From an uncultured Gemmiger sp. (GTDB lineage Bacteria > Bacillota > Clostridia > Oscillospirales > Ruminococcaceae), in assembly GCA_944388135.1 (NCBI GenBank), contig CALXHP010000072.1:1-47099 (forward strand): a stretch of DNA of 47,099 nucleotides. Reading direction: 5' to 3'. The notes under the pieces were generated by a model, which was not told where the DNA came from, made no database searches, and saw only the letters and a list, made by a program, of their open reading frames with translations. Of this stretch, positions 1 to 22,238 are shown piece after piece. Position 1 is the stretch's first letter, and each line of letters opens with the position of its first letter. The translations under genes were made by a program, and so were the position numbers.

Positions 1-10
1 CCTTTAGGGA

Positions 11-75
11 GCGACCACAGGAGATAGGCCCTTATAGGGCCTGTTCAAACCACCCGTTCAACGGGTGGTTTTGAT
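11..75. repeat. Tandem hairpin pair, possible REP-like or IS200/IS605-type end
   Basis: Two perfect inverted repeats lie side by side just past the 3' end of the rep gene. The first has arms AGGCCCT and AGGGCCT (about 27-43) and the second has arms AACCACCCGTT and AACGGGTGGTT (about 48-70), followed by a short T run on the plus strand. Paired subterminal hairpins are typical of REP elements and of IS200/IS605-family ends, and either hairpin could also terminate transcription. No transposase is visible because the window starts here. The mobile-element reading is a guess. Confidence 0.35.
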
Positions 76-151
76 TTCTATGCGGTATTCCTCGGTGAAC
101 CCGCCGACATTCTTTACAAGGATGTCCCTTCTCTTTTCCGGGAATGCTTTG

Positions 152-2041
152 TCATGCTTCTTCCTCAAAAGCAGACATCCAGTTGGTCTGAAAGCCGCCC
201 CCGGCCAACACAGTCCTTTTGGCTTTCTGGTTTTCAATCACGCCAAAGGGCATCAACAAAGAATTTTCGATCTCCGACTGGAACAAAAGCTTGGGATTTC
301 GCACCTTCTCGTCCCGGTTCACCTTTTTCCAGTAGGTATCATAGTCATAGGCGGTGGCCAATGCCTCAAAAAGCGGCGTCAGGGAACCGTATTTCAGGAT
401 GCATTTGTTCAGACTGTTTAAAAACTGCATGTTGGCTTTGCCATCCATCATGCCTTCGTCTTTGCTCTTGACATTGCGGCGGCAGAAGTATACCGCCAAC
501 TGCAGAATTTCGTCGTAGGCTTCCTTTTGTCCGGAGGTCAGCTGTTCTGCCAGCTCTTCCTCGTCGATAAAACGCCGCAACGCCTGAAGCATGCTTTTTT
601 TGGTCCCGGCATCCTGGGGAATCAGGACACTGCCGGCCTCTTCCTCGTGCTCTGCTTCCACACAATCGGCTTCATATACGGGGTCCTCCTCCGGTAGGGA
701 AGAAGCCCCGGCCATGCCGGTGCCTGCCGTATACAAACGATAGTTGTCCATATCTTCCAGAATGGATTTCCACAGATAGGGAACCGGAGATGCTTTGGTT
801 TTGGCAATGGGAATGACTTTGCGGGCATACCGTCCGGCAATGCCCAGAAACCATTTATGCAAGCTCTTGCACTCATAGATGATTTCATTCATAGCTTCAA
901 AGAACTGCTGATTTCCGCCATCGATGAGCGGGGCTTTTCCGGTATTTTTCCCTGCCATATTGGCCATGGTGTTGATCAGGATGTGTACCGCTTCCAATTC
1001 GGCATCGGCCAGTTCCCGGGTCAGTTTTTCCATTTCGGCCCGCACTTCGATCTCTTTTTTCAGCTCTGCCGGTTTTTTGCCGAAGGAGTAGGGAATGGTT
1101 GTCTCGGGGGAAGAAACATACCCCAAAGACATAACACTGGGGTCCTGATCGAACCGCTCGGTCTCTTCCAGGGCAGCAGTGGTGCGGCGCTTCTTGCGTT
1201 TGGAAATGGCAGAAGAAATGTCGGTGAGATTGCGGCTGGCTTCGCTTTGAGCCACGGGCTCGATCTTTACCGAGATGGCCACCACCTTGGACTTGGCCTT
1301 TTTGTACACTTCATAGTCGAATACGATATCCGTATGGCCGTTGATCTCACTTTTTGCTTTATCCAGCACGATGCGCCGGATATGAGCCCAGTTGGTAGCG
1401 CTGCAATCTACCTGTTTGCGCAGTTGGTCGATATCCCAGATCAGCGGCTTACCCTTGGCCTTGTTCTGAAGATACAGACTCTGGTAACTTTTGCACAGCT
1501 CATAAATGCGGATGCTGTACTGGCTTTTCATGAGCATGATGTAGGTCACGTCCATGGTGGTATATAACTCTTTGAGCTGAATCAGGTGCGGTTTGAGCAA
1601 CGGACTCAGGGTCAGCACGATCTTGCCGGTACGCTGATCGATCGTAGCAGACTCCAACCAACGCAGGATCGTGTATTTTTGGGTTCCTTCGATACGAATC
1701 CACTGGACTTTGGCATTGGCGATATCTTCGATGTTTTTTTTTACCTGATTGTACATGGACCCGTTATGGGGGTCCACACCGCAAAGTTTCAAAAACTCGT
1801 AGATGGACATCTCATACCGGGGCAGTTCCGTATCAGAAGGCTTGATCATTGCAAAGATGTGCAGCATCAGCTTTTGCTGGCTCAGCGTCAGGCTGTACAT
1901 CGCGTTCTGGATCAGCTCATTGGATTTTCGAACAACAGTTTGGTTGCCACGCTCCCCAAATGTAGCAACGGTCTGTTCTTTTTCTTCATAGTCTTCTGCA
2001 ACCAGGGAGGTGAACTCTGTTGCAGTTTTCCGGTTTGCCAC
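152..2041 (-). CDS. Rep_3-family replication initiator protein with long C-terminal extension
   Basis: Replication initiator of the Rep_3 family (RepE/Pi/RepA of iteron plasmids), expected to bind the iterons upstream and open the origin. The 629-residue protein has two winged-helix regions in about residues 30-265. The family signature lies around residues 150-190 (a serine-proline strand, then the helix with SQYSIRIYELCKSY). Plasmid members usually have 230-400 residues; here residues 270-629 form an extra acidic, helix-rich domain I do not recognise. The start is GTG at 2041, chosen because AGGAG lies 8 nt upstream; the nearby ATG is out of frame. A consensus-like promoter lies at 2081-2109. 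It sits alone, with no parA/parB beside it. The family call is firm; whether it drives chromosome or relic-plasmid replication is unknown. Confidence 0.9.
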   Translation of the reverse strand: MANRKTATEFTSLVAEDYEEKEQTVATFGERGNQTVVRKSNELIQNAMYSLTLSQQKLMLHIFAMIKPSDTELPRYEMSIYEFLKLCGVDPHNGSMYNQVKKNIEDIANAKVQWIRIEGTQKYTILRWLESATIDQRTGKIVLTLSPLLKPHLIQLKELYTTMDVTYIMLMKSQYSIRIYELCKSYQSLYLQNKAKGKPLIWDIDQLRKQVDCSATNWAHIRRIVLDKAKSEINGHTDIVFDYEVYKKAKSKVVAISVKIEPVAQSEASRNLTDISSAISKRKKRRTTAALEETERFDQDPSVMSLGYVSSPETTIPYSFGKKPAELKKEIEVRAEMEKLTRELADAELEAVHILINTMANMAGKNTGKAPLIDGGNQQFFEAMNEIIYECKSLHKWFLGIAGRYARKVIPIAKTKASPVPYLWKSILEDMDNYRLYTAGTGMAGASSLPEEDPVYEADCVEAEHEEEAGSVLIPQDAGTKKSMLQALRRFIDEEELAEQLTSGQKEAYDEILQLAVYFCRRNVKSKDEGMMDGKANMQFLNSLNKCILKYGSLTPLFEALATAYDYDTYWKKVNRDEKVRNPKLLFQSEIENSLLMPFGVIENQKAKRTVLAGGGFQTNWMSAFEEEA

Positions 2042-2080
2042 GAACCATGCTCCTCACACTATGTAATTTTGACCCGCAAG

Positions 2081-2109
2081 ATAATACCACATTGTGCTGC
2101 CTTCGTCAA
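2081..2109 (-). promoter_or_regulatory. Promoter of the rep gene
   Basis: On the minus strand, TTGACG (2109-2104) and TATTAT (2086-2081) are separated by exactly 17 bp. The start of transcription would lie about 33 nt before the GTG codon. The nearest iteron begins about 100 bp further upstream, so iteron-bound Rep could influence this promoter, but no iteron overlaps it. Confidence 0.7.
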
Positions 2110-2154
2110 TTATTGTAATTCTCAACACATTTTGAACTTTTTAACGCTGTTCCG

Positions 2155-2212
2155 ACATTGGTGACTTTTTATGTCCTTTATATTCTTTATATTTTAGATA
2201 AATAATGTTACC
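2155..2212. other. AT-rich segment, candidate DNA-unwinding element
   Basis: A stretch of almost only A and T, with a few G/C bases, lies between the rep promoter and the first iteron. AT-rich DNA next to an iteron block is where the duplex opens in iteron origins (established for plasmids such as R6K, F and P1). Its position fits; melting itself is inferred. Confidence 0.4.
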
Positions 2213-3017
2213 TGTGCCATAAATAACAACCCAGCTAGGTGCACTATTACAACTGCACTGTGCTTTTTATAACAATAAAACTGGGATGGCTTTTCCAATG
2301 TGTGCAGAATAACAACCATCCCTATTGTGCTCTGTATAACAACGGTTGCAGGCAGGTCAAGAAAAAGAAACTATGCTCAAAATAACAACAGAGAAAACCG
2401 ATCGATAGAACGATTTTTTGTACAGGCTCAGGCGGAAAAGTTGTGCTGTGAATAACAACAGAGACCTGCGTCAAAGAAATGTGCTCCGGATTACAACCAC
2501 AAACCAGGGAAATGTGTCCTGTTTAACAACACCCGGATGTTCGGCAATTGTGTTCTGAATTACAACAGGAAAACGAACAGCTGTGCTGAGAATAACAATA
2601 CTTCAAAAAAAGCAATTCCAAAAATTATGCGTATCTTCGTCAAGGAGCAGGAAATGTGCTCTGAATTACAACAATAACTGTGCTGAAAATAACAACCCAA
2701 CGCAAGGCAAAAGAAAAACGCCATGCATTCCGAGCGAAAAGCAAGTGTGCTTTGAATAACAATAGGGGATTTTTAGGAAATGTGCTGTAATTTACAACAG
2801 GAAAAGGGAAGCAAAAGAAGAAAAAATCAGGAAAATGTGTTGTCTATAACAACACTTTGGGAAGAAAAAGAGGAGAAGAGGAAGAAAAAAGAAAGTTTTT
2901 TTTCAAGACAAATGTGTTGTGAATAACAACAAAAAGGGAGAACTGTGTTCTGAATTACAATAGCCAGCAGGTGAAAAAAGGGCCTTTTCCAGGCAGAGCT
3001 GTGTTGTAAATAACAAC
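2213..3017 (+). repeat. Iteron array: about 19 same-orientation 18-bp repeats
   Basis: Consensus TGTGCTSTGAATAACAAC (Y at position 5, S or T at position 7, A or T in the ATWAC core). Copies begin at 2213, 2236 (degenerate), 2259, 2299, 2326, 2372, 2442, 2480, 2513, 2549, 2582, 2655, 2679, 2746, 2781, 2836, 2913, 2944 and 3000. All point the same way. The right half (AAYTAACAAC-like) is best kept. Start-to-start distances run from 23 to 77 bp rather than a fixed 20-22 bp, and the spacers are unrelated to each other, so this is not a tandem satellite and not CRISPR. Together with the adjacent Rep_3 gene this is an iteron-type replication origin, probably also controlling copy number. No protein-coding gene is supported from 2042 to 3250. 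Confidence 0.85.
2859..2895 (+). other. 37-nt uninterrupted polypurine tract inside the iteron array
   Basis: All bases from 2859 to 2895 are G or A, in a GAA/GAG/GGA-rich run between the iterons at 2836 and 2913. The flanking spacers from 2799 are also purine-rich. It could bend DNA, form a triplex, or simply be a spacer. No function is claimed. Confidence 0.5.
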
Positions 3018-3512: not shown

Positions 3513-3881
3513 ATGGCAGGGTATGCGTATTTGGAACGGCTGGAAGAATTGCTGGCGGAGTTGCCACCGGATGACCGTAGAAAGGTGCTGCAGTACTACG
3601 AGAAATATTTTGAAACTATAGGACCTGAAGCGGAAGAACATGCTGCGGAAGCGTTGGGGTCTCCAGAAGAAGTTGCGGCAAAAATTCTCTGGAAAAGGGA
3701 AGAACCGGAAGTAGCATTCGGCTCACTGAAACGCAATTTTCTTCTGGGGCTGGTGGCGCTGCTCCTGTTGTTTGCCATGGCAGTAAGCGTGACTGTCTTG
3801 GCGGAAAGAAAATACCGGGCGTCCACAGCGCCTACGGCAACAGAGGAAGTGCAACCCACCTACGCCCCGGAAGAAGAGTAA
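3513..3881 (+). CDS. HAAS (DUF1700-like) domain membrane protein
   Basis: A 122-residue protein. Residues 4-60 form the helical HAAS/DUF1700 domain (YLERLEELLAELPPDDRRKVLQYYEKYF, then a PEEVA stretch), the same module that starts the larger protein at 4241. One membrane helix follows at about residues 74-95, then a short Pro/Thr/Glu-rich tail. HAAS domains commonly accompany PadR-type regulators and envelope proteins in Firmicutes. This copy has no sensor domain and may be a partner or decoy of the larger one. It starts at ATG 3513 after GGGAGAGA and is first of three genes on the same strand. The molecular role is not known. Confidence 0.75.
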   Translation: MAGYAYLERLEELLAELPPDDRRKVLQYYEKYFETIGPEAEEHAAEALGSPEEVAAKILWKREEPEVAFGSLKRNFLLGLVALLLLFAMAVSVTVLAERKYRASTAPTATEEVQPTYAPEEE

Positions 3882-3923
3882 AAAAGTCCCTTATAAAAAG
3901 TTAAAGAGAAAGGAGGAAAGCAG

Positions 3924-4241
3924 ATGGTCATCAATACCAGTGCCGCACTGTTGGATGCCATTGTGCTGGCGGTGGTTGCACGGGAGGAACGGGGAACCTA
4001 TGGATATAAAATTACCCAGGATGTCCGGCAGGTACTGGAGCTGTCGGAGTCTACCCTGTATCCAGTGCTGCGCCGCCTGCAGAAGGATGGCTGCCTGACG
4101 GTGCGGGATGAAGCCTGTAACGGGCGAAACCGCCGTTATTATGAAGTGACCACTGCCGGACGGGAACGGCTGGAGAAGTTCCGTGGGGAGTGGGATGCCT
4201 ACACGAGCCAGATCAATAAATTGTTTAGGGGGGAACTGTGA
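3924..4241 (+). CDS. PadR-family transcriptional regulator
   Basis: A 105-residue winged-helix repressor. The PadR signature is clear: LLDAIVLAVV, then GTYGYKITQDV, the recognition segment SESTLYPVLRRLQKDG, and the wing RRYYEVTTAGRERL. It lies between two HAAS-domain genes, preceded by AAAGGAGG. Its TGA overlaps the next ATG by one base (TGATG), so the two are translated in concert. PadR proteins of this short type usually repress their own operon and respond to envelope stress or small ligands. The ligand cannot be read from the sequence. Confidence 0.9.
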   Translation: MVINTSAALLDAIVLAVVAREERGTYGYKITQDVRQVLELSESTLYPVLRRLQKDGCLTVRDEACNGRNRRYYEVTTAGRERLEKFRGEWDAYTSQINKLFRGEL

Positions 4242-5419
4242 TGAGGAAGTACGCCTATCTGGCAAAACTGGAAGAACTGCTGGCCGCTTTGCCGGCGCAG
4301 GAACGGCAGGATGCGCTGAATTTTTACGAAGAATATTTTGACGCGGCAGGCAGCGAGAACGAAGAAAAAACGGCAGAAGAACTGGGGGATCCGGCGGAAG
4401 TGGCCCGTAAAGTGCTGGAAGGGGAAGGCATTGCTGCGCCGGAAGAGGATTCAACCCAACCGGACCGGAATATCGACCCGCCGCCCGCACCAACAATCGA
4501 TGCAGCGGCGGAACAACCTTTGCCCGAGGACCTCCCCTTCGCTGTATCTCAAAATCCGGTACCGGAAACGCCGGTTTCCCCGGTCCAGACGCCGGTCAGG
4601 CGCTCGTTTTCGCAAGTTTGGCTGGTGGTCGGGGTGCTGATAGCGTTGGCGCTGGTAATCCAGCTGGCGGTACTGGCATCAACCCTCGGCGGTAGCGACG
4701 GGGAAAAGACGGCCGCTTCGATGATAGACTCTATCGAAAGTGAATCCACGGAAGCGGAGACACTTTCTCCGGCGCCTGTGGACCACGGATTCTCCGGCTC
4801 CGGTTTGGTTACATACACAGCTGATATACGCACCAACGGCCGGGGCACGCTGAACATTGTGATCAACAGCGGCAATGTGGCCTTCCAGACCGGAAAGGCC
4901 GGCAAGATCGAAGTGAGCAATGTGGATGTTTCACAGGCGGTCACTCTTTCGAAAACAGACGGAGAAGATTCCTTCACTTGTGAAAGCAATGACCCGGCCA
5001 CTCATGTGACCGTTACACTTCCGGCGGATGCTTACCAGGCTGTCAATGTTATGATTTTAAACAGTGGGGCCATTGAGCTGGGCAATTTACAGGCGGAAGA
5101 GATCACAGCCATTACGGCGGAGGGGCTTATTCAGTCGGAGCAAGTGTGCGCAGGTTCACTGGCCCTTCAGACCAATAAAGGCAGCATCTGGCTGGAAAAG
5201 GCCGCAAACGGTACCAAGTACCAGTTGGAAAGGGTAACCCTGTCGGCCCCCCAGGGGTATGTTTCGGCCAGGCTGGATGCGCCGGAATCCAGCTGGGAAA
5301 CCAAGATTACCAACGGAGAAGGGTACAGCAGAACAACAATGGCGGATGAAAATACAGAGACGGTCCGCTATCTGGATGTGCAGGCAGGCGGCAAGATCGA
5401 TCTCCAATATACGAAATGA
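4241..5419 (+). CDS. HAAS/DUF1700 membrane protein with DUF4097-like extracellular domain
   Basis: About 392 residues. An N-terminal HAAS domain (about 3-60: YLAKLEELLAALPAQERQDA) is followed by a Pro-rich linker and one membrane helix (about 124-147, VWLVVGVLIALALVIQLAVL). The last 200 residues are Gly/Asn/Thr-rich beta-strand repeats of DUF4097 type (from about GRGTLNIVINSGNVAF), predicted outside the cell. DUF4097 beta-helical domains occur in envelope stress proteins such as LiaX (family knowledge). ATG 4241 is used; GTG at 4238 is an equally close alternative. It overlaps padR by one base. It probably couples an envelope signal to the PadR repressor; this is inferred from the arrangement. 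Confidence 0.75.
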   Translation: MRKYAYLAKLEELLAALPAQERQDALNFYEEYFDAAGSENEEKTAEELGDPAEVARKVLEGEGIAAPEEDSTQPDRNIDPPPAPTIDAAAEQPLPEDLPFAVSQNPVPETPVSPVQTPVRRSFSQVWLVVGVLIALALVIQLAVLASTLGGSDGEKTAASMIDSIESESTEAETLSPAPVDHGFSGSGLVTYTADIRTNGRGTLNIVINSGNVAFQTGKAGKIEVSNVDVSQAVTLSKTDGEDSFTCESNDPATHVTVTLPADAYQAVNVMILNSGAIELGNLQAEEITAITAEGLIQSEQVCAGSLALQTNKGSIWLEKAANGTKYQLERVTLSAPQGYVSARLDAPESSWETKITNGEGYSRTTMADENTETVRYLDVQAGGKIDLQYTK

Positions 5420-5501: not shown

Positions 5502-5530
5502 TTGACAACACTGCTTTAATCTGGTAAAGT
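5502..5530 (+). promoter_or_regulatory. Promoter of the leu operon leader
   Basis: TTGACA (5502-5507), a 17-bp spacer and TAAAGT (5525-5530). Transcription would start about 5537, giving a leader of about 350 nt before leuA. Confidence 0.7.
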
Positions 5531-5544
5531 AATCGTATTGAAAA

Positions 5545-5846
5545 AATGCAGTGATGGGGAGAAAGCAATTCCCAGTCCGCTTCAGAGAGCCGCCGGTTGG
5601 TGCAAGGCGGTGCGGCAGGTCTTGCGTCACTGGCCCCGGAGCAGCCGCGTTGATGGCCTGTTGGCTGTAGGTGCGGACGGAACCTGACCGTTATCATGCA
5701 GGCGCGATTCGCCCCATAAGGCTGATCGTACAGAGCGGCCGTCCGGATGGATTGTGACGGCAATGAGAGTGGTACCGCGGGTACAGCAATTTGCATTTGC
5801 TCCCGTCTCTCAAAGGCAAAACGCCTTTGAGGGACGGTTTTTTTAT
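5545..5846 (+). promoter_or_regulatory. T-box leader (leucine-type) of the leu operon
   Basis: A tRNA-sensing T-box riboswitch. Stem I elements are visible (GAGAGCCGCCGGTTGGTG near 5585), and the hallmark T-box AGAGTGGTACCGCGG lies at 5766-5780. A terminator follows. The expected specifier position carries CTG (5630-5632), a leucine codon, which matches the downstream leuACDB genes; the specifier assignment was made by eye. Uncharged tRNA-Leu should pair with the specifier and T-box bulge and favour the antiterminator, switching the operon on when leucine is short. Confidence 0.9.
5803..5844 (+). terminator. T-box regulated terminator
   Basis: CCGTCTCTCAAAGGC (5803-5817) pairs with GCCTTTGAGGGACGG (5823-5837), with a single T-G pair, and is followed by seven T. 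Its 5' arm overlaps the strand needed for the T-box antiterminator, as expected. Confidence 0.85.
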
Positions 5847-5889
5847 GCCTCCTTCAAGGGCACACGAAACCTTGAAGGAGGCATTTTTT
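5847..5889 (+). promoter_or_regulatory. Second terminator-like hairpin that sequesters the leuA ribosome binding site
   Basis: GCCTCCTTCAAGG (5847-5859) and CCTTGAAGGAGGC (5870-5882) form a perfect 13-bp stem with a 10-nt loop, followed by A and six T directly before ATG 5890. The 3' arm contains the AAGGAGG Shine-Dalgarno of leuA. The hairpin could therefore terminate transcription or hide the ribosome site. Its presence just after the T-box terminator is unusual. Confidence 0.7.
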
Positions 5890-7557
5890 ATGATGGACGC
5901 AACCAAGTATGCAGTAGGGTATTATCCGCCGCCGGTAGAACCCGGCCACGTGTTTGAGTGGACCAAGAAAGACCACATCGAGAAAGCACCCGCCTGGTGC
6001 AGTGTGGACCTGCGGGACGGCAACCAGAGCCTGATCGTGCCCATGAGCCTGGAGGAAAAACTGGAATTCTACGATATGCTGGTGAAAATCGGCTTCAAAG
6101 AGATCGAAGTGGGCTTCCCCGCGGCCAGCGAGACCGAGTATGAATTCCTGCGCAAATTGATTGAGGAAAACCGGGTTCCCTCCGACGTGACGCTGCAGGT
6201 GCTGACCCAGTGCCGTGACCACATCATCCGCAAGACCTTCGAGGCCGTCAAGGGAGCGCCCCGGGCCATCATCCACTTCTATAATTCCACCAGTGTGGCC
6301 CAGCGGGAGCAGGTATTCAAAAAGTCCAAGGAAGAGATCAAACAGATCGCTGTGGACGGTGCCAAGCTGGTCAAGCAGCTCAGCGAGGAATACGAAGGCA
6401 ACTTCCTGTTTGAGTACAGCCCCGAGAGCTTTACCGGCACCGAACCGGAGTACGCAGTGGAAGTCTGCAACGCCGTGCTGGATGTCATGCAGCCCACACC
6501 GGACCGTCCCATGATCATCAATCTGCCGGTTACGGTGGAAATGAGCATGCCCCATATCTACGCCAACCAGATCGAATGGTGCTCCAACCATCTGAAATAC
6601 CGGGACAGCGTCATCCTCTCCACCCATCCCCACAATGACCGGGGCTGCGGTGTAGCAGACGCCGAACTGGCTGTCCTGGCGGGCGCCCAGCGCGTGGAGT
6701 GCTGCCTCTTCGGCAACGGCGAACGCACCGGCAACGTGGATGCCATCACCCTGGCCATGAACATGTACAGCCACGGTGTGGACCCCCATCTGGATTTCAG
6801 CGACATGCCTGCCATCTGCGAAGTATACGAGCGTGTCACCCGGATGCATGTCTATGAGCGTTCTCCCTATGCAGGCAGCCTGGTCTTTGCGGCCTTCAGC
6901 GGCAGCCATCAGGACGCGATTGCCAAGGGCATGACCTGGCGCAAGGAAAAGGGCGAGCACCGCTGGACCTGCCCTTATATTCCGGTGGACCCCCACGATA
7001 TCGGCCGTACCTACGACGCCGATGTTATCCGCATCAATTCCCAGAGCGGAAAGGGCGGCATCGGCTTCCTGCTCCAGCAGAACTACGGCTACAATCCGCC
7101 GCCCAAAATGCGGGAGGATCTGGGCTACCGTGTCAAGGAAGTCAGCGATCACGAACATCGCGAGCTGGGCGTCAAGGAAGTGTTGTATGTCTTTGAAAGG
7201 ACCTACCTCAACCATACCAATCCATTCAATGTGACCGAAGCCCATTTTGTGCAGAATCCCGATCACACCATCACCGCCAACATCACGATTTCGGTCAACG
7301 GCCAGACCACGAACTGCACCGCTACCGGCAATGGCCGTCTGGACGCGGTGGCGACGGCCATCGAGCAGCAGACCGGTATGCATTTCACACTGGTTCATTA
7401 CAGCGAACATGCCTTGGATTCCGACACCGACTCCCGTGCCTGCTCCTACGTGGGCCTGAAGTGGGCTTCCGGTGAGGAGACCTGGGGCTGCGGCACCCAT
7501 ACCGATATCATCGTGGCCGGTATCCGGGCCCTTGTCAGCGCCATCAACAATAAATAA
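5890..7557 (+). CDS. leuA: 2-isopropylmalate synthase
   Basis: First committed step of leucine synthesis: acetyl-CoA plus 2-oxoisovalerate to 2-isopropylmalate, cytosolic. At 555 residues it is the long (LeuA type 2) form. The TIM-barrel motif SVDLRDGNQSL is near residue 38, the metal-binding HPHNDRGCG near 240, and GNGERTGNVD near 270. The C-terminal LeuA dimer domain (about 430-555) should bind leucine for feedback inhibition. Start ATG 5890 has AAGGAGG 7 nt upstream; the frame stays open to 5791 but that part is T-box leader. A second ATG follows at once. First gene of leuACDB, controlled by the T-box. Confidence 0.97.
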   Translation: MMDATKYAVGYYPPPVEPGHVFEWTKKDHIEKAPAWCSVDLRDGNQSLIVPMSLEEKLEFYDMLVKIGFKEIEVGFPAASETEYEFLRKLIEENRVPSDVTLQVLTQCRDHIIRKTFEAVKGAPRAIIHFYNSTSVAQREQVFKKSKEEIKQIAVDGAKLVKQLSEEYEGNFLFEYSPESFTGTEPEYAVEVCNAVLDVMQPTPDRPMIINLPVTVEMSMPHIYANQIEWCSNHLKYRDSVILSTHPHNDRGCGVADAELAVLAGAQRVECCLFGNGERTGNVDAITLAMNMYSHGVDPHLDFSDMPAICEVYERVTRMHVYERSPYAGSLVFAAFSGSHQDAIAKGMTWRKEKGEHRWTCPYIPVDPHDIGRTYDADVIRINSQSGKGGIGFLLQQNYGYNPPPKMREDLGYRVKEVSDHEHRELGVKEVLYVFERTYLNHTNPFNVTEAHFVQNPDHTITANITISVNGQTTNCTATGNGRLDAVATAIEQQTGMHFTLVHYSEHALDSDTDSRACSYVGLKWASGEETWGCGTHTDIIVAGIRALVSAINNK

Positions 7558-10652: not shown

Positions 10653-11333
10653 CTATCGGGCTTCCTGCCAGGGATGGAGGGCGGCCCAGTGGTTGTAGTG
10701 CACAGCCTGCCAGATCTGGCAGAGGATGGCCCAGAGCAGTTCATAGGCAATGGCGGCCCAGTAGCTCATGGTGACAGGGTAGGCAGGCGAAAGCGCGTTG
10801 GGCAGAAGAATGGCAGCCACAAAGGTTACCAGCATCAGGATATACCACAGGACCTGGGGAAGGCTGCCGTAACGGACTTTTATTTTCAGTGCCATGCGCC
10901 GGAACCAGGCCCAGACACACAGCCAGAGCAGCCACCGGAAGGGAGAGGAAACGATCCGGACGACTTCGGGCTCCCTGGCGCCGGGCATCAGAAGCACAAG
11001 CAGATTGAACAGCACCATGATCAGCATCAACCGCGGATACCATGTGCATACATAATCCAGCGGCGTGCCGCGGGGCAGATCGGGCGCCAGTTCCAGCAGA
11101 AAACGGTCGGTATCGCCGCCCACTTCTTCTTGCAGGGTGCGGCCTTCCAGTTCGCAGCGGGCTGCCATGGCAATCAGATCTTTGCGTATGCGTTCGATTT
11201 CGTACTGGTTCCAGGTGATCGCCTGTAAATGGCTGGAAATATCCTTCAGCACCTCACGATTCTTCCCATTCAGGGTTTCGACACTCATATCGTTGGCCTT
11301 TTTCAGAAGTGTGTACTGATTTTGCAGCAGCAT
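10653..11333 (-). CDS. PadR-associated multi-pass membrane protein of unknown function
   Basis: 226 residues. The first ~95 form an amphipathic, charged helical region (SSHLQAITWNQYEIERIRKDLIAMAARCE), reminiscent in layout of HAAS domains but not clearly one. About four membrane helices follow (roughly 100-120, 130-148, 160-180, 190-210), with a Trp-rich C terminus. It lies just downstream of a PadR repressor and ends at the shared terminator. Regulator-plus-membrane-protein pairs of this kind are common in Firmicutes, often near antimicrobial or envelope stress functions. No family is claimed. Confidence 0.65.
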   Translation of the reverse strand: MLLQNQYTLLKKANDMSVETLNGKNREVLKDISSHLQAITWNQYEIERIRKDLIAMAARCELEGRTLQEEVGGDTDRFLLELAPDLPRGTPLDYVCTWYPRLMLIMVLFNLLVLLMPGAREPEVVRIVSSPFRWLLWLCVWAWFRRMALKIKVRYGSLPQVLWYILMLVTFVAAILLPNALSPAYPVTMSYWAAIAYELLWAILCQIWQAVHYNHWAALHPWQEAR

Positions 11334-11384
11334 AACGGGTCACATCCTTTCCGTGATTTCACAGGAAAACGGGAAACAAAAACC

Positions 11385-11705
11385 TCAGTCTTGCAAAATG
11401 GCGTCGATGCTGGCGGCAGTTGTACGCCACGCTGCCATAAATTCCAGCAGGTATTGCTGTCCATCCTCTGTAAGGGTGTAATATTTCCGGCTGGGACCTC
11501 CGTGGCCTGCACGATATTCAGCGTAAATCAGACCTTTTCGTTCCAGCCGTAGCAGCAGGGGGTAGAGGGTACCTTCCGTCAGGTCGGTAAAGCCGCTGTC
11601 CCGCAGGGTTGTGGCGATGGCATACCCATAGGTGGCTTCCCGAGAAATGATCTTCAGGATGCAGCCTTCCAGGGTGCCTTTCCGCAGCTGTGCCTGATCG
11701 AACAT
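11385..11705 (-). CDS. PadR-family transcriptional regulator
   Basis: A 106-residue repressor. Motifs: LRKGTLEGCILKII, EATYGYAIATTLRD, the recognition helix EGTLYPLLLRLERKGLI and the wing GPSRKYYTLTEDGQQYL. The start at 11705 is chosen for GGAGGTG placed 5 nt before ATG; the frame is open to 11735 but without a ribosome site. It is the first gene of a two-gene operon with the membrane protein at 10653. The promoter lies inside an inverted repeat CTACCTTG...CAAGGTAG, a likely autoregulatory operator. The inducer is unknown. Confidence 0.9.
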   Translation of the reverse strand: MFDQAQLRKGTLEGCILKIISREATYGYAIATTLRDSGFTDLTEGTLYPLLLRLERKGLIYAEYRAGHGGPSRKYYTLTEDGQQYLLEFMAAWRTTAASIDAILQD

Positions 11706-11718
11706 CCGCCCACCTCCA

Positions 11719-11777
11719 CTACCTTGTATTACCATGTTCTTTGACTATATTGTATCGCAAGGTAGATGCGCTGTCAA
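11719..11777 (-). promoter_or_regulatory. padR promoter with flanking inverted repeat operator
   Basis: On the minus strand, TTGACA (11777-11772), a 17-bp spacer and TACAAT (11754-11749). The 8-bp repeats CTACCTTG (11765-11758) in the spacer and CAAGGTAG (11726-11719) after the start site face each other, and the half-site centres are about 39 bp apart. This fits a PadR dimer bound across the promoter and early transcript. Confidence 0.7.
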
Positions 11778-11791
11778 GAGGGGACACATAA

Positions 11792-11823
11792 AAAATGCGG
11801 CGGCCATTTGGCCGCCGCATTTT
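11792..11823. terminator. Bidirectional terminator at the end of the polysaccharide operon
   Basis: A perfect 14-bp inverted repeat (AAAATGCGGCGGCC / GGCCGCCGCATTTT) with a 4-nt loop. On the minus strand the hairpin ends in TTTT, closing the operon whose last gene ends at 11827. Confidence 0.85.
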
Positions 11824-11826
11824 GCG

Positions 11827-12870
11827 TCAGAAAAGTTTTTTTAAAGGGGCATACCAGACATTGGCCAACCAGTTGAATACACGGTTTACCGGGCCGCTGC
11901 ACAGCATACACAGGCAGCCGGTAGCCTCCAGCACGACCCAGGCAACGATGACCGGTACAGGATGTTCCCGGGCAGGTTCATAGAAGCCAAGCTCAATGAG
12001 GAAGGTCAGGATCGGGAAGTGCAGCAGATAGATGGGCAGTGTACGTTTGCCAAGGCTGGCAAATACCCGGAAGCCGCCCAGTGCGGCCACCAGCCCCACG
12101 CTTGTCACAATGCCCACCAGCAAAAATAGGGCACGGTCAGACATGGCATAGCCTTCCCCATAGGGTACATCATTAAAAATTTTGGCACTCTCCCCAAGGC
12201 GGCCTTCCATCTGCATCATCTGCCGGAATCGTATTCCGTAACCAAGCAGCAGCAGGAGGCCGGGAACCACCCGGACAACCCAGAACCGGCGGGCCAAGCG
12301 GTCCAAGGCATCAATCTGCGGGCGGAACAGCACACCGAATGCATAGAAGGGGTAAAACGCAAAGACGCGGACCAAGGTAAACGGCCAGTCGATGGTCCCT
12401 GCCCACAGACTGATGAAAACCGCAACAGCCAATCCCAGGATAGAACCGGGCAGCCGCAGGACGTCCCGTAACAGAGAGAGCAGGGGAAGGGTCAGATGCC
12501 AGAAAAGTAAGGCATATAAGTACCACATATGCCGCCAGGGCAGCAGAAAGGCCATAAGAAGCCCCCCGGAAGCAGCAAAGTCTTCCCGCAGGATAACAGC
12601 ACGGAAAGCCAGCATAATGCCCTGGCCCAGCAAATAGAGCCAAAGCTGCTGGGCAATGAGTTTGCGCAGGCTGAAATGTGCAACCAGACCGCTGCACATG
12701 CAAAACAATGCCATGTGGAACCAATAGATCGAAATAAAGGTAGCGCCGATCAGATGGGAGCCCAGGCGGTACTGCTCCATAAAATGGCCGAAAACGACCA
12801 GCAAAATGCCAAGGCCTTTCAGTATGTCGATATAGTCTCGCCGTACAGGTGTGCTTTGTCGTTTCGCCAT
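11827..12870 (-). CDS. Membrane acyltransferase, Acyl_transf_3 family
   Basis: An integral membrane O-acyltransferase (OafA/WecH type) of 347 residues with about ten predicted membrane helices. The N-terminal signature RRDYIDILKGLGILLVVFGH contains the conserved Arg/Asp and His of the family. Such enzymes acetylate or succinylate sugars of surface polysaccharides. The start is ATG 12870, with AAGGGGG upstream; the frame extends to 12927 without support. It is the last gene of the minus-strand polysaccharide operon, so it probably modifies the glycan built by the upstream genes. The donor and target sugar are not readable. Confidence 0.85.
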   Translation of the reverse strand: MAKRQSTPVRRDYIDILKGLGILLVVFGHFMEQYRLGSHLIGATFISIYWFHMALFCMCSGLVAHFSLRKLIAQQLWLYLLGQGIMLAFRAVILREDFAASGGLLMAFLLPWRHMWYLYALLFWHLTLPLLSLLRDVLRLPGSILGLAVAVFISLWAGTIDWPFTLVRVFAFYPFYAFGVLFRPQIDALDRLARRFWVVRVVPGLLLLLGYGIRFRQMMQMEGRLGESAKIFNDVPYGEGYAMSDRALFLLVGIVTSVGLVAALGGFRVFASLGKRTLPIYLLHFPILTFLIELGFYEPAREHPVPVIVAWVVLEATGCLCMLCSGPVNRVFNWLANVWYAPLKKLF

Positions 12871-12927
12871 AAAAACCCCCTTAGAAAAAATGCGGGCTGG
12901 TATCAGCCCGCGCAGCGGTATGTACAA

Positions 12928-13467
12928 TCAGACGTTTTCCCACGGGGAGCGAATGATCTCCCCGGAATCCACCTTGGTGAAAGGAGCAACCTCGGCTCCC
13001 GCCTTGACGATGCCACCGGGGGCTATATGTACACCACGGCCCAGCACGGCATCGTGGTCTACGATGGCCCCGGCATTCACAATGCAGCCGGTCCCCAGGT
13101 GAACCCCGGCCCCCACATAGGCCTGGGGCAGGATGACGCAGCCGGGTTCCAGTACGGCGCTGGGGCTGACCGAAGCGGCAGCGCTGATATAGACGGGCGT
13201 TTCATACCCGGCGGCGGATATTTTTTGAAGGAGTTTTACCCGGAGCTCATTGTTGCCAAGGGCCACAAAGGCAGGGCGCCCGGGCTTTAACAGAGCGGGA
13301 TCTGCGTAATCCCGCAAGGTACCCGCACAGCCGGGGGCGTTGTCATCCAAGAATTCTGCAACACCCCAACCGTCTTCTGCCAGCCAATCGGCCAGCTGAC
13401 GGCCAAAGCCGCCTTTGCCCAGAATCAGGGGGCGGCGATGAAAGCGGTTCCTAGAAAGAAGTGACAT
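12928..13467 (-). CDS. NeuD/PglD-family sugar O- or N-acetyltransferase
   Basis: 179 residues. A PglD-type N-terminal Rossmann-like domain (LILGKGGFGRQLADWL, then LDDNA) binds the nucleotide sugar. A left-handed beta-helix of hexapeptide repeats (about 95-175) binds acetyl-CoA; the catalytic His is probably in AGAIVDHDAVLGRGVHIAPG. Members acetylate sialic acid or amino sugars. ATG 13467 is preferred because AGGAGG lies 7 nt before it; ATG 13473, which overlaps the upstream TGA, is the alternative. It is part of the acyl-modification block 11827-16402. Confidence 0.88.
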   Translation of the reverse strand: MSLLSRNRFHRRPLILGKGGFGRQLADWLAEDGWGVAEFLDDNAPGCAGTLRDYADPALLKPGRPAFVALGNNELRVKLLQKISAAGYETPVYISAAASVSPSAVLEPGCVILPQAYVGAGVHLGTGCIVNAGAIVDHDAVLGRGVHIAPGGIVKAGAEVAPFTKVDSGEIIRSPWENV

Positions 13468-13469
13468 CC

Positions 13470-14882
13470 TCATTCCTCCTGTGTAGAATCGGCAGAGCTT
13501 TCGGCAGCGGGCTCACCGTCGCCGGTCTCAGCGGTTTCTTCATCGGTGGTTCCCGTATCCAGACTGGTGCGGGGATGAACGGCAAGGGGGTCCGGCAAGG
13601 TGTTGTTTTGCAGATCCTGCAACACCTGGGGAACACCGGGGAAGAACCGCTCAATGCCGGTGCCGGAGCAATGCAGGCCATCGAAGAAGTCGGTTTCCTG
13701 CAGGCCCTCAATGCACTCGGGGTCATAACTGCCGTAGAGGGGAATGTTGTGGTCGGCGGCATACTGCCGGACCCAGTTTTCCACCTGGAAGAATCCCTTG
13801 TGATTGTCCGGTTCGGTGAGCAGATATCCATACAGATAGGGATGCCAGGGAGACAAAACCAGAATCACGGTGGTTCCCTGGGACTGCGCGTATTGAATAA
13901 AGGAATCAAAGGCCTGCATCTGCGTTTCGCTCATGGCGTCGAAGCCTTCCATATGTACGCTGTTAAAACTCATACAGGCTTCGGCGGCCAAGGTGCGGAT
14001 CTGGTCGGCCGTTTGGGTCCGGAATGCTACATCGTACAAAACGCTGCCGTCTGAACGTTTGATGGTGGTGGTCTGCTCGTAAGGGTCCCCTTGCACCGGG
14101 TTGAACTCAATGGTATTGCCCTCGTCATCGGTAACGGTGGCCTGCCCATGATTCTTCACGTAGTAGTCCACGTTGCCCTGGAAATAGGCGGGGTCCGCCA
14201 AAGCGCGCCACAGTTCCACCTTGTCCGGTTCTTCGTAATCGGTGGGAACATTCAGAACTTTGGTGAGAAATTCGTTGTAGAGGTCTGCGTCCGCACGGGA
14301 ATCAAAGGCAGCCTCGCTGCCGTAGAACACCCACGGGTCCAGGCTCCAGATCAACACCTGGGGCGTTTTGCCATAGCTGACCATCTTGTAGTAGCTGGTC
14401 ATGTTGTCACGGACATCGGCACCGGTGACGCCCATGTTGAAGAAACTCTCCACGCCGGTGTTTTCGCGATTGAACTGCAATACGCGGCTGGAACCGATGC
14501 CGATGGCCTCCGGGGCCTCCGGAACGTCCTGCGCATACAATTGTACAACCTGACGTTCGTCCATCTGCTCGAAGTTGGTCACATCGTAACCTTCCAGCAT
14601 CAGGTCCACAATGCGGCGGGGCGCCAGCGCACCCTGAAACAGGCCGCTGCGGTCCACGTTGTAGCTGAAAGCAACCATGAACACCAAAATCGGTACCAGC
14701 AGCAGGCATTTGAATGCTGTTTTGGTGCCGAAAAAGAGACGGCGGACCAATCCTTGCAGAAACCAAAGGATGGGATTGCGTCGCTTTTGCTTACGGCGAT
14801 GACGGGCAGGCTGGGTTTTTGCTGCGCCGCGTCGGATCTTGACAGGCGGCGTGGGGATAGGGGCAGGGGTATTTGCAGGCAT
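13470..14882 (-). CDS. SGNH/DltD-AlgX-like acyl-transfer partner of the MBOAT protein
   Basis: 470 residues. A basic N terminus and one membrane anchor (about 48-68, KCLLLVPILVFMVAFSYN) precede a large extracytoplasmic domain. GIGSSRV holds the presumed nucleophilic Ser, and DGLHCSG near residue 400 holds the Asp/His of an SGNH hydrolase triad. The C-terminal ~40 residues are Thr/Glu/Ser-rich. It follows the MBOAT gene by 17 bp. MBOAT plus SGNH pairs (DltB/DltD, AlgI/AlgX, PatA/PatB) move acyl groups across the membrane to surface polymers. ATG 14882 follows AAAGGCGG; the longer open frame upstream lies inside the MBOAT gene. Confidence 0.82.
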   Translation of the reverse strand: MPANTPAPIPTPPVKIRRGAAKTQPARHRRKQKRRNPILWFLQGLVRRLFFGTKTAFKCLLLVPILVFMVAFSYNVDRSGLFQGALAPRRIVDLMLEGYDVTNFEQMDERQVVQLYAQDVPEAPEAIGIGSSRVLQFNRENTGVESFFNMGVTGADVRDNMTSYYKMVSYGKTPQVLIWSLDPWVFYGSEAAFDSRADADLYNEFLTKVLNVPTDYEEPDKVELWRALADPAYFQGNVDYYVKNHGQATVTDDEGNTIEFNPVQGDPYEQTTTIKRSDGSVLYDVAFRTQTADQIRTLAAEACMSFNSVHMEGFDAMSETQMQAFDSFIQYAQSQGTTVILVLSPWHPYLYGYLLTEPDNHKGFFQVENWVRQYAADHNIPLYGSYDPECIEGLQETDFFDGLHCSGTGIERFFPGVPQVLQDLQNNTLPDPLAVHPRTSLDTGTTDEETAETGDGEPAAESSADSTQEE

Positions 14883-14899
14883 AGGTACACCGCCTTTCC

Positions 14900-16402
14900 T
14901 TAATATTGCTGATAGATAAATGCGGATTGACCGAAGGCAGCAAAGAAAAGAATGGCTGCCGCGGCCGTATAGTAGAGGGTCCAGCGCAAAGGCCAGACCT
15001 GTTTGCGGACCCAGGCGGAAACATTCTGCCTGGTATGCTCCACGGCAAAGACAACGAAGCAGCCAAACCACAGGACCACCGGCAGACGGCCGTCGATGCC
15101 GCTGTCATAGATCAGTGCGGTGATCTGATGCCAACTGCCGGCCAGGCCCTGCCACCCCTGCAGCATGGAGGCGTAGATGGCAAAGGGATCGGCATTGTAC
15201 AAAGCGCTGGCGAAAAACACCAGGGTGAAGCAAAACAGAATATTGGTACAGAAAATCTGCCACAGAGATTTGAACCAGGACGCCCGATAGAGCAGATTGT
15301 AACGGTCCAGACGACGGCGGGACTTGGCCGTCAGGGCGCCAATGGCGGAAATCAGGCCGCAGGCAAGACCCCAGACCAGATACCGCCAGTCGGCGCCGTG
15401 CCACAAACCGGAACAGAGAAAGACGATCACAATGTTGAGATAGTGACGCCAGGGTGCGCAGCGGCTGCCGCCAAGGGAAAAGTAGACATAATCCCGGAAC
15501 CAGCCGGTCATGGAAATATGCCAGCGGCGCCAGAAATCACTGAAACTGCGGGATTCAAAGGGTGCCTGGAAATTCTCAATCAGGTCATAGCCCAGAATAC
15601 GCGCAGCACCCAGGGCAATGTCACAACAGCCGGAAAAATCCATGTACAACTGCACGGCAAAAAGAACGGTGGCCGCTACCAGGTTGGGACCGCTCATGCC
15701 GGCGGGGTCGCCGTATACCACCGAGACATAGTGACTCAGGTTATCGGCGATTACCATCTTTTTGGTATAGCCCCATAACATCCGGAAAGCACCGCCCGCA
15801 CAGCGATTATAGCTGAACCGCCGGCTTTTCTGGATCTGAGGCCGCAATTGGGGGTAACGTTCGATAGGACCGTTGATGAGGGTGGGGAAAAAGCTTACAA
15901 ACAGCGCATAATGGAAGGGATTGGTCTCTACCCGGCAGCGATGTTTGTACACATCGACGGTGTAGCTCAGGGCCGCAAAGGTGAAGTAGCTCAATCCCAG
16001 CGGCGCCAGCAGGTTGTCACGATGGCTCAGCAAACTGCCGCCCAGACTGTCAGCCAGAAGATTCCAGTACTTATAATAGATCAGGACTCCCACGCCGCCC
16101 AGAATTGCCGCCAGCAGGGCGATGATCCGCACGGCTTTGATCCTGACCCGGCCAATGACCAGACCGCACAGCCAGGTGACTACGGTAGCGCCCAGCAAAA
16201 CCCAAACCAGCGGGCGATTGGCAGGGTCATAGCAGAAAAACGCATAGCTGACCGCCAGCAAAAAATACGGGCGCGCTATGCGCGGCAACGCGTAGTGGAC
16301 CAGCGCTGTTGCCGCAAAAAAGACAATAAACAACAGCGAGGTGATGGCCATTGTCTGGTCACCGCTCAAAAAGGCAAGGATCTGTTCCCAGGTGATTGTC
16401 AT
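14900..16402 (-). CDS. MBOAT-family membrane O-acyltransferase
   Basis: A polytopic membrane O-acyltransferase of 500 residues, AlgI/DltB type, with roughly eleven membrane helices. The family hallmarks are PLGLSYFTFAALSYTVDVYK, NGPIERYPQL, SRSFSDFWRRWHISMTGWFRDYVYFSLGG and the catalytic His in CSGLWHGADWRYLVWG. It should accept an acyl group from a cytosolic donor and pass it across the membrane to the SGNH protein encoded next. ATG 16402 has GGAGAG about 9 nt upstream. An internal Met at about 16351 starts the first helix but lacks a ribosome site. Confidence 0.92.
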   Translation of the reverse strand: MTITWEQILAFLSGDQTMAITSLLFIVFFAATALVHYALPRIARPYFLLAVSYAFFCYDPANRPLVWVLLGATVVTWLCGLVIGRVRIKAVRIIALLAAILGGVGVLIYYKYWNLLADSLGGSLLSHRDNLLAPLGLSYFTFAALSYTVDVYKHRCRVETNPFHYALFVSFFPTLINGPIERYPQLRPQIQKSRRFSYNRCAGGAFRMLWGYTKKMVIADNLSHYVSVVYGDPAGMSGPNLVAATVLFAVQLYMDFSGCCDIALGAARILGYDLIENFQAPFESRSFSDFWRRWHISMTGWFRDYVYFSLGGSRCAPWRHYLNIVIVFLCSGLWHGADWRYLVWGLACGLISAIGALTAKSRRRLDRYNLLYRASWFKSLWQIFCTNILFCFTLVFFASALYNADPFAIYASMLQGWQGLAGSWHQITALIYDSGIDGRLPVVLWFGCFVVFAVEHTRQNVSAWVRKQVWPLRWTLYYTAAAAILFFAAFGQSAFIYQQY

Positions 16403-16447
16403 ACTTTCTCTCTCCGTTTACTCAACCGATGGACCCCACCCCAGGGG

Positions 16448-16801
16448 TTATTGCTTTTCTTCCAGATCACGCAGCCGCTTTTCCAGAATGGCATTGGCCT
16501 GGGTGAGCCGCTTGCATTTGTCGGCCAGTTGACTGATGGCAATGCTCAGGGACAGCAGAACGATCAGTACAAAGCAGAACATCAGCAGAAATACCAGATT
16601 GACAGGCATTTCCATGTCCAGCAGATCACGGAGAACATAAACCACATAGGGGAACATGGCAAAAATCACAAGGCCGACGGCCAGTCCCAGCCATAGCAGA
16701 CTGTATTTGACGCTCATCAATCCCCGTTTCAGAAAGATAAAGATGATGAGCAGCAATGCCACTGCGCCCAGAATCATAAAAAATTGCAGTTGAGGGGTCA
16801 T
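16448..16801 (-). CDS. DUF2304 membrane protein, partner of the adjacent glycosyltransferase
   Basis: 117 residues with three membrane helices (about 5-24, 33-55, 66-90), then a short coiled coil (KCKRLTQANAILEKRLRDLEE). The family DUF2304 is found almost always next to a dolichyl/polyprenyl-phosphate mannosyltransferase-like GT2, as here, and probably helps present or flip the lipid-linked sugar (inference from association). Its ATG overlaps the GT2 stop by 4 bp (ATGA). Confidence 0.85.
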   Translation of the reverse strand: MTPQLQFFMILGAVALLLIIFIFLKRGLMSVKYSLLWLGLAVGLVIFAMFPYVVYVLRDLLDMEMPVNLVFLLMFCFVLIVLLSLSIAISQLADKCKRLTQANAILEKRLRDLEEKQ

Positions 16802-17517: not shown

Positions 17518-17540
17518 AAGGGTACCTCACATCCGGGCGG

Positions 17541-18764: not shown

Positions 18765-18765
18765 C

Positions 18766-19905: not shown

Positions 19906-19956
19906 GACAAACCATCCTTTTCAGAAAATTGGACAGGGGAAATTTTGGCCGGCCCG

Positions 19957-22144: not shown

Positions 22145-22199
22145 GATGGCCTCCTTATTTTGATGCGTCAGGACGCAAATCTCCTTTATAATCTTCCCT

Positions 22200-22228
22200 A
22201 TTTTAACACATAAACCGACGTTTGAAAA
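22200..22228 (-). promoter_or_regulatory. Promoter of the FucNAc polysaccharide operon
   Basis: On the minus strand TTTTCA (22228-22223), a 17-bp spacer and TAAAAT (22205-22200). A small hairpin TGCGTC/GACGCA lies in the leader before the fnlA ribosome site. This divergent region is shared with pepT. Confidence 0.5.
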
Positions 22229-22238
22229 GTGTACCGCC

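What the first reader, a model, noticed from the sequence alone, without database searches (positions are those of the whole stretch)
152..3017. Iteron-plasmid style origin embedded beside core chromosomal genes
A Rep_3 initiator with its own promoter, an AT-rich stretch and about 19 same-direction 18-bp iterons form a complete iteron origin. Yet the same contig carries leu, fab and dcw genes, so it is not a simple plasmid. Iteron origins usually hold 3-12 tandem copies at a fixed 20-22 bp pitch; here copies are more numerous and spaced 23-77 bp. The core genes fab and dcw, and also leu, run away from it on the plus strand, as they would if a fork left here to the right. It may be an integrated replicon, a chromid-type second origin (compare RctB of Vibrio chromosome 2), or a chromosomal origin not relying on DnaA alone.
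Basis: partly seen in the sequence, partly recalled or inferred. Interest (0 to 1): 0.88.

Follow-up and report, generated by a model that had tools for sequence, protein, structure and literature searches.

The report
Plasmid-type replication origin inside chromosome
A complete plasmid-style DNA replication start site, with its own starter protein and 18 binding sites, is built into the chromosome of one group of gut bacteria that also keep a normal start site; it seems to be kept by selection, and in one subgroup the DNA around it carries a trace that could mean copying starts there.

Summary
In detail: a Rep_3 initiator (152-2041, minus strand), a promoter with an operator iteron, an AT-rich element and 18 direct 18-bp iterons (2213-3017). 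The window is a whole 47-kb contig of a Gemmiger draft genome. Rep orthologues occur in 7 of 35 Gemmiger genomes and in 0 of 65 other relatives. They keep the same origin layout and, in clade B, a rep under purifying selection (omega 0.07-0.14). In the single-contig relative G004 the locus lies inside the 3.24-Mb chromosome, far from dnaA, with no skew switch. A normal-looking dnaA origin persists in carriers and non-carriers alike. So it is neither the main origin (G004) nor a chromid, but a plasmid-type origin resident in the chromosome, a 3-4 kb module where measurable, in three different sites, with no mobility gene found beside it. In clade B (G006, G017, G027) two things hint at use: in G027 an origin-type skew switch falls at the iterons (G017 agrees in part, G006 does not), and an iteron sits between the -10 and ribosome site of a flavodiiron-type gene in all three. 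Firing as a second origin is possible but unproven; rearrangement is a live rival. Novelty: new variant of a known kind.

The parts
152..2041 (-). rep: 629-aa Rep_3-family initiator; WH1 and WH2 in the first ~260 residues; the last 330 residues, tested alone, have no significant family match
   Evidence: a C-terminal profile was found in 1 of 197 sampled genomes of the family, the window's own (the other six carriers gave no match and so were evidently not in that sample)
2081..2109 (-). rep promoter, TTGACG-17 bp-TATTAT, extended -10
   Evidence: TTGACx and TATxAT at the same place upstream of rep in the other loci read
2112..2129 (-). operator iteron, opposite in direction to the array, abutting the -35
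   Evidence: scored in 6 of 7 loci, in G027 below the scan threshold
2166..2206 (.). AT-rich element, probable unwinding element, between the array and the operator iteron
   Evidence: same place in 7 of 7 upstream regions examined, with last array iteron to operator 97-103 bp in 6 of 7
2213..3017 (+). array of 18 direct 18-bp iterons, start-to-start 24-77 bp
1..77 (.). dispersed repeat with hairpin; 5 further copies, each at or within a few bases of a contig end of the same assembly; probable reason for the contig break
3233..3233 (.). point from which the sequence becomes alignable to G004 beside the insertion; the array side of the inserted module ends between 3018 and 3233
3513..5419 (+). 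flanking HAAS, PadR and HAAS/DUF4097 genes; partly shared with Rep-free relatives (context)
5791..7557 (+). leuA, the chromosomal anchor used for synteny (context)

Best explanation
This is a plasmid-type iteron replication origin resident in the chromosome of one group of Gemmiger, beside (not instead of) the ordinary dnaA origin. Shown: an intact Rep_3 initiator, an operator iteron at its promoter, an AT-rich element and an iteron array, in the same order and nearly the same spacing in divergent species; purifying selection on rep in clade B; chromosomal flanks; unfilled sites in relatives. Inferred mechanism (from established knowledge of RepE and pi-type initiators): Rep monomers bind the iterons through WH1/WH2 and melt the AT-rich element; Rep at the operator iteron represses rep; excess Rep pairs iteron arrays and limits firing. 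In the window's clade (A) it leaves no skew trace where tested (G004), so it is silent, conditional or rarely fired. In clade B it may fire as a second origin, and Rep probably also represses a neighbouring flavodiiron-type gene through a borrowed iteron. The module presumably entered the group as a small replicon and has changed site within it.
For: Rep domains and profile matches to RepE and pi structures. Iterons far beyond chance; clusters of more than two pattern hits only beside rep. Conserved layout: last array iteron to operator 97-103 bp in 6 of 7 loci, AT-rich block between, despite 58-60% protein identity between clades. Carriers: 7 of 100 genomes searched, all among the 35 Gemmiger genomes. 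All 7 fall in one rpoB group of 8 among 28 genomes, support only 0.62. In clade B rep dS is 0.67-0.81 beside 0.44-0.93 for three neighbouring genes, omega 0.07-0.14, same chromosomal place (G006 represented by MT839673.1 for rep). G004: rep at 0.30 Mb of one 3.24-Mb contig. Unfilled leu site in G026, G034, G001 and G020. In G001 a ~3.6-kb insert starts right at the 3' end of a tRNA-Trp gene; the site is unfilled in G026 and G004. dnaA at full length in 7 of 7 carriers and DnaA-trio-like repeats in 7 of 7 aligned regions, 5 carriers and 2 not. Clade B: G027 switch at the iterons; G017 asymmetry index -0.044 (-0.102 to +0.014) left and +0.136 (+0.033 to +0.243) right; iteron at the flavodiiron promoter in 3 of 3, absent from G004 and G026.
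Against: No direct evidence of Rep binding or of firing. G004 has no switch at rep. In G006 the first 60 kb right of rep have a negative index (-0.137, 12 genes) and no changepoint is significant. The gene-controlled changepoint of G017 lies about 30 kb left of rep, with a permutation p as small as G027's, so such a p does not single out rep; the permutations also ignore correlation between neighbouring genes. In the paired-orthologue test, left-hand genes of G027 and G017 are also shifted relative to G004, so the step at rep is not clean there. Clade B is rearranged around rep relative to G004. In clade A rep is AT-rich for its host (GC3 0.48-0.63 beside 0.71-0.75 for leuA) and its synonymous sites are saturated (G000-G004: pS 0.79, against leuA 0.44, leuC 0.45 and one other gene 0.63), which fits repeated acquisition as well as vertical descent. 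Three different sites. No DnaA box common to the loci.
Confidence: 0.62

Rival explanations
1. Repeatedly acquired small integrated plasmid: the locus is a mobile replicon that enters, sits a while in chromosomes and is lost; conservation reflects selection on its free life, not on a chromosomal role.
For: Three integration sites, one exactly at a tRNA 3' end; AT-rich rep and saturated synonymous sites in clade A; absent from G026 and G034, of which G026 lies inside the carrier group.
Against: Clade B: one site in three species, rep dS like the neighbours, rep GC3 like the host. No free relative found: of 985 plasmid records with a match, 0 cover 80% of Rep; no relative in viral contigs for two Rep queries, and 0 contigs with the paired-iteron pattern. 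The only phage record covering 80% or more of Rep, of 8 with a match, is MT839673.1, a Gemmiger chromosome piece.
Confidence: 0.22
2. Decaying relic of an integrated plasmid with no present function.
For: No skew trace in G004 or in the 20 kb read around rep in G001; no partition or mobility gene among 30 flanking ORFs scanned, 16 of which had no match at all.
Against: Intact ORFs of 624-664 aa in the six genomes where the gene is complete, omega 0.07-0.14 in clade B, full iteron arrays and promoters.
Confidence: 0.08
3. Rep has become mainly a transcription factor: iterons serve as operators for rep and nearby genes (flavodiiron-type gene in clade B), with the array as a titration reservoir rather than an origin.
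For: Iteron between the -10 and ribosome site of the ODP/flavodoxin gene in 3 of 3 clade B genomes, absent in G004 and G026. Dispersed iteron-pattern hits away from the locus: 18 in 7 carriers, 5 in 8 non-carriers, binomial p 0.003, chosen after the fact, genome sizes rounded, contexts unread.
Against: The AT-rich element and its spacing to the array are conserved, which a pure regulator would not need. One dispersed site shared by clade B lies in a nearly identical stretch and looks like shared recent DNA. No such promoter site was seen in clade A.
Confidence: 0.15
4. The skew switch at rep in clade B is a rearrangement breakpoint, not origin firing; rep merely lies near a recombination hot spot. 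(A rival to origin firing, compatible with the rest of the best explanation.)
For: Left flank of rep maps to G004 332-343 kb, right flank to 446-451 kb and then, inverted, to 2.56-2.39 Mb. G006 and G017 fit less well.
Against: Relative to G004, orthologues right of rep have reversed strand asymmetry on both gene strands in G027, which asks for long replication in the other direction rather than a recent inversion.
Confidence: 0.55

Closest known systems
Rep_3 / RepE-pi iteron plasmid origins (F, R6K, P1 type)
   Same: WH1-WH2 initiator, direct iterons beside rep, AT-rich element, iteron at the rep promoter
   Different: Chromosomal; 18 iterons at irregular 24-77 bp spacing, while a passage of the review PMC4980987 lists two to seven (passages); a long C-terminal part without significant match in the libraries searched; no DnaA box common to the loci
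Single-chromosome Vibrio cholerae NSCV1/NSCV2, ori1 plus plasmid-type ori2 on one chromosome (PMC6284228; abstract and one results section read)
   Same: A DnaA origin and an iteron origin on the same chromosome; there ori2 is active in one strain and silent in the other
   Different: Vibrio: fusion of a whole second chromosome in single strains. Here: a 3-4 kb module in a group of species, with no sign of a fused replicon; Rep_3, not RctB
Synechococcus elongatus dnaA deletion with integrated plasmid (reported second-hand in PMC7198777; passages read)
   Same: Origin of an integrated plasmid can replicate a chromosome
   Different: Laboratory suppressor after loss of dnaA; Gemmiger carriers keep dnaA
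Salmonella genomic island SGI1, an integrated element with its own replication (PMC7433901, PMC7826253; search listing only)
   Same: Integrated element with replication functions
   Different: SGI1 is a mobilised resistance island (recalled and from abstract starts); here no mobility genes were found beside rep

Membership tests
Rep_3 initiator family | WH1 and WH2 domains | tested here: met
   PF01051 and PF21205 above cut-off; RepE/pi profile matches
Rep_3 initiator family | binds its iterons | not testable with these tools
   needs protein-DNA assay
Iteron plasmid origin | direct repeats beside rep plus AT-rich element | tested here: met
   in G001 and G004 the two copies farthest from rep are reversed
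   24-77 bp
Iteron plasmid origin | DnaA boxes in the origin | tested here: not met
   no box common to the 7 upstream regions; G004 and G019 have none, and those in G000 are TTATTCACA matches that read as the complement of iteron letters
Iteron plasmid origin | autonomous extrachromosomal replicon | tested here: not met
   chromosomal in G004 and flanked by chromosomal genes in G001, G017 and G027; ability to replicate freely untested
Chromid / secondary chromosome | separate replicon carrying core genes | tested here: not met
   G004 is one 3.24-Mb contig holding both dnaA and rep
Primary chromosomal origin | origin-type skew switch at the locus | tested here: not met
   G004: negative on both sides, gene-controlled cumulative minimum at 2.02-2.06 Mb
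Secondary chromosomal origin in clade B | origin-type skew switch at the locus | tested here: inconclusive
   G027 yes; G017 by raw cumulative skew and by left/right index but not by gene-controlled changepoint; G006 no significant changepoint
Secondary chromosomal origin in clade B | copy-number peak in growing cells | not testable with these tools
   no reads available
ICE / IME / prophage | integrase, relaxase or phage genes next to the locus | tested here: inconclusive
   none among 30 mechanically picked flanking ORFs scanned with Pfam, but 16 of the 30 had no match; left side of the window unreadable

The most novel reading that the evidence does not exclude
In clade B the plasmid-derived iteron locus works as a second, DnaA-independent origin of a single bacterial chromosome. 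It has fired long enough to reverse strand asymmetry over 200 kb or more to its right, while the old DnaA origin is kept, and its initiator has at the same time been recruited as repressor of an oxygen-handling (flavodiiron-type) gene. Clade A then holds the silent or conditional form, giving a natural series from integrated plasmid to chromosomal origin.
Probability: 0.27. Interest if true: 0.9.

Novelty: new variant of a known kind. Interest (0 to 1): 0.62.

Why it matters
Bacterial chromosomes are thought to fire from one DnaA origin; plasmid-type origins working on chromosomes are known to me mainly from laboratory suppressors and fused Vibrio strains. A group of gut Firmicutes that has kept an intact plasmid-type origin in the chromosome, in silent-looking and possibly active forms, would let one test how a chromosome tolerates, silences or adopts a second origin, and why selection keeps the initiator.

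Tried and rejected
Main origin at rep: rejected for G004 by skew, gene orientation and the Rep-free control G026. A first gene-orientation profile from longest ORFs gave the opposite picture because antisense ORFs were picked; it was replaced by coding-potential calls. A first rpoB comparison picked antisense ORFs (omega above 1) and was discarded, then redone.

rpoB tree: 28 of 35 genomes; 7 dropped, none of them carriers (G005, G018, G023, G034 without match; G003, G009, G020 with short fragments only). The branch that groups the 8 genomes has support 0.62, and several inner branches are lower.

Free phage or plasmid form: MT839673.1, deposited as Bacteriophage sp., turned out to be 97% identical to the G006 chromosome over the shared part. 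Searches of plasmids, phages and viral contigs gave no other relative covering most of Rep. Remote iterons as a crtS-like control site: the number of stray hits for the first pattern is about what chance gives by my own estimate, and one shared site lies in a nearly identical block; the second pattern shows an excess in carriers that I could not follow up. dif: one weak 9-mismatch hit only, in the sampled part of G004. C-terminal part: no significant family. Fold of Rep: the job had not finished at the last poll, so no structural claim is made.

Literature: the rows listed by eight searches held no paper on an iteron origin in a Gemmiger chromosome; only titles and abstract starts were seen apart from the five papers opened in part.

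Changes made when the report was checked against the calls: G019 is no longer given as an unfilled tRNA-Trp site (another sequence abuts there); the DnaA-trio-like repeat differs in G017; the ICE/prophage test is now 'inconclusive'; against-evidence from G006 and on the permutation test was added.
Full report
WHAT IS THERE. The window is a whole contig, G000:C72, of a 2.23-Mb, 82-contig draft genome. The ORF at 152-2041 (minus) is a Rep_3 initiator, with profile matches to RepE and pi. Upstream come the promoter TTGACG-17-TATTAT, a reversed iteron abutting its -35 (2112-2129), an 87.5% A+T 40-mer at 2166 and 18 direct 18-bp iterons from 2213 to 3017 at 24-77 bp steps. Chance is excluded: 18 matches against a mean of 0.07 and a maximum of 2 in 100 shuffles. 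The left end of the window is a 77-bp dispersed repeat with five further copies, each at or within a few bases of a contig end, so the contig break is probably a repeat artefact.

DISTRIBUTION. Of 100 genomes searched with Rep, 7 match, all among the 35 of the genus (G000, G001, G004, G006, G017, G019, G027); 0 of 65 others do. The last 330 residues have no Pfam match and only insignificant PHROG and NCBIfam matches; their profile was found in 1 of 197 sampled family genomes, the window's own (the other carriers were evidently not sampled). On an rpoB tree of 28 genomes the 7 carriers and G026 form one group (support 0.62). Rep splits into clade A (G000, G001, G004, G019; 76-84% identity) and clade B (G017, G027 and MT839673.1 standing for G006; 86-91%), with 58-60% between them.

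CONSERVED ORIGIN LAYOUT. In 7 of 7 upstream regions examined (G000, G001, G004, G017, G027, MT839673.1, and G019 as far as its contig allows) the order is array, AT-rich block, operator iteron, promoter, rep. The last array iteron lies 97-103 bp from the operator in 6 of 7; in G027 an extra iteron lies in the leader and the operator falls below the scan threshold. At score 11 or more, complete regions hold 15 (G004) to 22 (G017) sites, counting operators; in G001 and G004 the two farthest copies are reversed. Positions and spacers change between species while the motif is kept, as expected if Rep and iterons are kept together. In clade B rep has omega 0.07-0.14 and a dS (0.67-0.81) like three flanking genes (0.44-0.93), at one place in three species. 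That argues for residence and selection in the chromosome. In clade A the picture is less clear: synonymous sites are saturated and rep is AT-rich for its host, so exchange or repeated entry is possible.

WHERE IT SITS. In G004, one contig of 3,244,954 bp, rep is at 300.7-302.5 kb and dnaA at 1.481 Mb. The leu site is shared by G000, G004 and G019 (in G019 split over two contig ends) and unfilled in G026, G034, G001 and G020. In G001 a roughly 3.6-kb insert carrying iterons and rep starts right at the 3' end of a tRNA-Trp gene; G026 and G004 run through there without it, and in G019 a different sequence abuts the last bases of that tRNA. In clade B the locus sits between sequence matching G004 332-343 kb and 446-451 kb. 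Among 30 flanking ORFs scanned none is an integrase, relaxase or phage gene, but 16 of the 30 had no match.

NOT THE MAIN ORIGIN IN G004. About 37% of G004, later about 41%, was sampled. Skew is mostly negative from about 3.15 Mb through 0 to about 1.1 Mb and mostly positive from about 2.2 to 3.14 Mb; gene orientation turns at about 1.1-1.3 Mb. The gene-controlled cumulative minimum is at 2.02-2.06 Mb, not at rep and also 0.55 Mb from dnaA. Around rep the asymmetry index is -0.035 (-0.119 to +0.037) on the left and -0.063 (-0.104 to -0.014) on the right. Rep-free G026 is likewise negative in the bins on both sides of the unfilled site. The region after dnaA (next gene recognised as dnaN by eye) carries CTACTACTACTAC in six of seven aligned genomes and CTACTACTGCTACTAC in G017, after DnaA-box-like sequence (5 carriers, 2 not), as in the DnaA-trio architecture of PMC8287927 (passages). 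G000 has no strict box there, its only strict box within 3 kb lying inside dnaA, but has the repeats.

CLADE B IS DIFFERENT. In G027 contig C43 all six bins up to 110 kb have negative skew (-0.012 to -0.044; the sixth, 90-110 kb, includes rep) and all ten from 106 kb on have positive skew (+0.001 to +0.035). Four-fold-site asymmetry averaged over both gene strands is -0.073 (-0.110 to -0.032) left and +0.071 (+0.039 to +0.102) right. The best changepoint falls between the gene centred at 102.6 kb and rep itself, that is, at the iterons (103.8-104.9 kb); none of 2000 permutations reached it. G017: index -0.044 (-0.102 to +0.014) left, +0.136 (+0.033 to +0.243) right; raw cumulative minimum at 66 kb (rep 62.7-64.5 kb), but the gene-controlled changepoint is at 32-33 kb with an equally small p. 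G006: eight of eight sampled bins from 60 to 360 kb are positive (+0.003 to +0.040), but the first 60 kb have a negative index (12 genes), a 10-40 kb stretch is strongly negative, and no changepoint is significant. Paired orthologues right of rep in G027 are shifted on both gene strands (+0.091, n = 21; -0.169, n = 15, coding strand) as if replication ran the other way than in G004; but left-hand pairs (n = 11) are shifted too. The Rep-free control G026 shows no shift on either side. The region is rearranged relative to G004. I therefore hold origin firing in clade B as possible, not shown.

A BORROWED OPERATOR. In G006, G017 and G027 a strong iteron (scores 24.0-29.8) lies between TGCTATACT (-10) and the ribosome site of an ODP/flavodoxin gene (flavodiiron-type by domains) 3-7 kb from rep; G004 and G026 lack it. 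In G017 the gene is turned round and the iteron went with it. Repression by Rep is the natural reading, an inference. Carriers have more dispersed iteron-pattern hits than non-carriers (18 in 7 against 5 in 8), but this test was chosen after seeing the data and the contexts could not be read.

VERDICT. An iteron origin by anatomy and a chromosomal resident by position, in part vertically inherited and under selection; not a chromid and, in G004, not the main origin. It works like a RepE/pi iteron origin as far as anatomy can say. As a member: Rep_3 family yes; iteron plasmid no (not shown to be autonomous, irregular pitch, no common DnaA box). Closest precedent: NSCV Vibrio strains, where the plasmid-type origin is active in one strain and silent in the other (PMC6284228; abstract and one section).

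Noticed in passing
L112 (MT839673.1, 1-4112): A GenBank record named Bacteriophage sp. from human faeces is a Gemmiger chromosome fragment (97% to G006). PMC12946183 (passages) reports GTA-like packaging of Gemmiger chromosomal DNA in gut particles, which could explain it.
   Followed up: partly
L093:6226-7434, L095:6608-7804, L096:2968-4167: Iteron placed as an operator of an ODP/flavodoxin gene in clade B.
   Followed up: partly
L170 (G019:C67:56000-75999), tRNA-Trp 3' end: In G019 a sequence other than the Rep module abuts the last ~13 bases of the tRNA-Trp gene where G001 carries the Rep insert, so this tRNA end may be an integration hot spot.
   Followed up: no
G004:C1 and G026:C1: rpoB lies about 0.46 (G004) and 0.42 (G026) of the genome away from dnaA; in G004 that is near the skew terminus, unusual for a highly expressed gene.
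   Followed up: no
G004:C1:2020661-2056128: Gene-controlled skew minimum lies 0.55 Mb from dnaA; skew near dnaA is weak and shows no sustained switch in the 20-kb stretches of five genomes looked at.
   Followed up: partly
G002:C33:51457-52728 and 94011-95324: Two full-length DnaA-family matches on one contig, one in an 875-aa open frame.
   Followed up: no
L009-L013 (G006 C43, C75; G027 C39, C22): Distant Rep_3 paralogues (27-33% identity) on other contigs, perhaps mobile elements.
   Followed up: no
G006:C68:10001-40000: Very strong negative skew (-0.13 to -0.29) over the stretches read right of rep.
   Followed up: no
window 10653-23461: Minus-strand run of genes, several with MBOAT, glycosyltransferase, UDP-GlcNAc epimerase and polysaccharide-synthesis domains.
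   Followed up: no
window 5520-5850: Leader before leuA that looks like a T-box; read by eye only.
   Followed up: no
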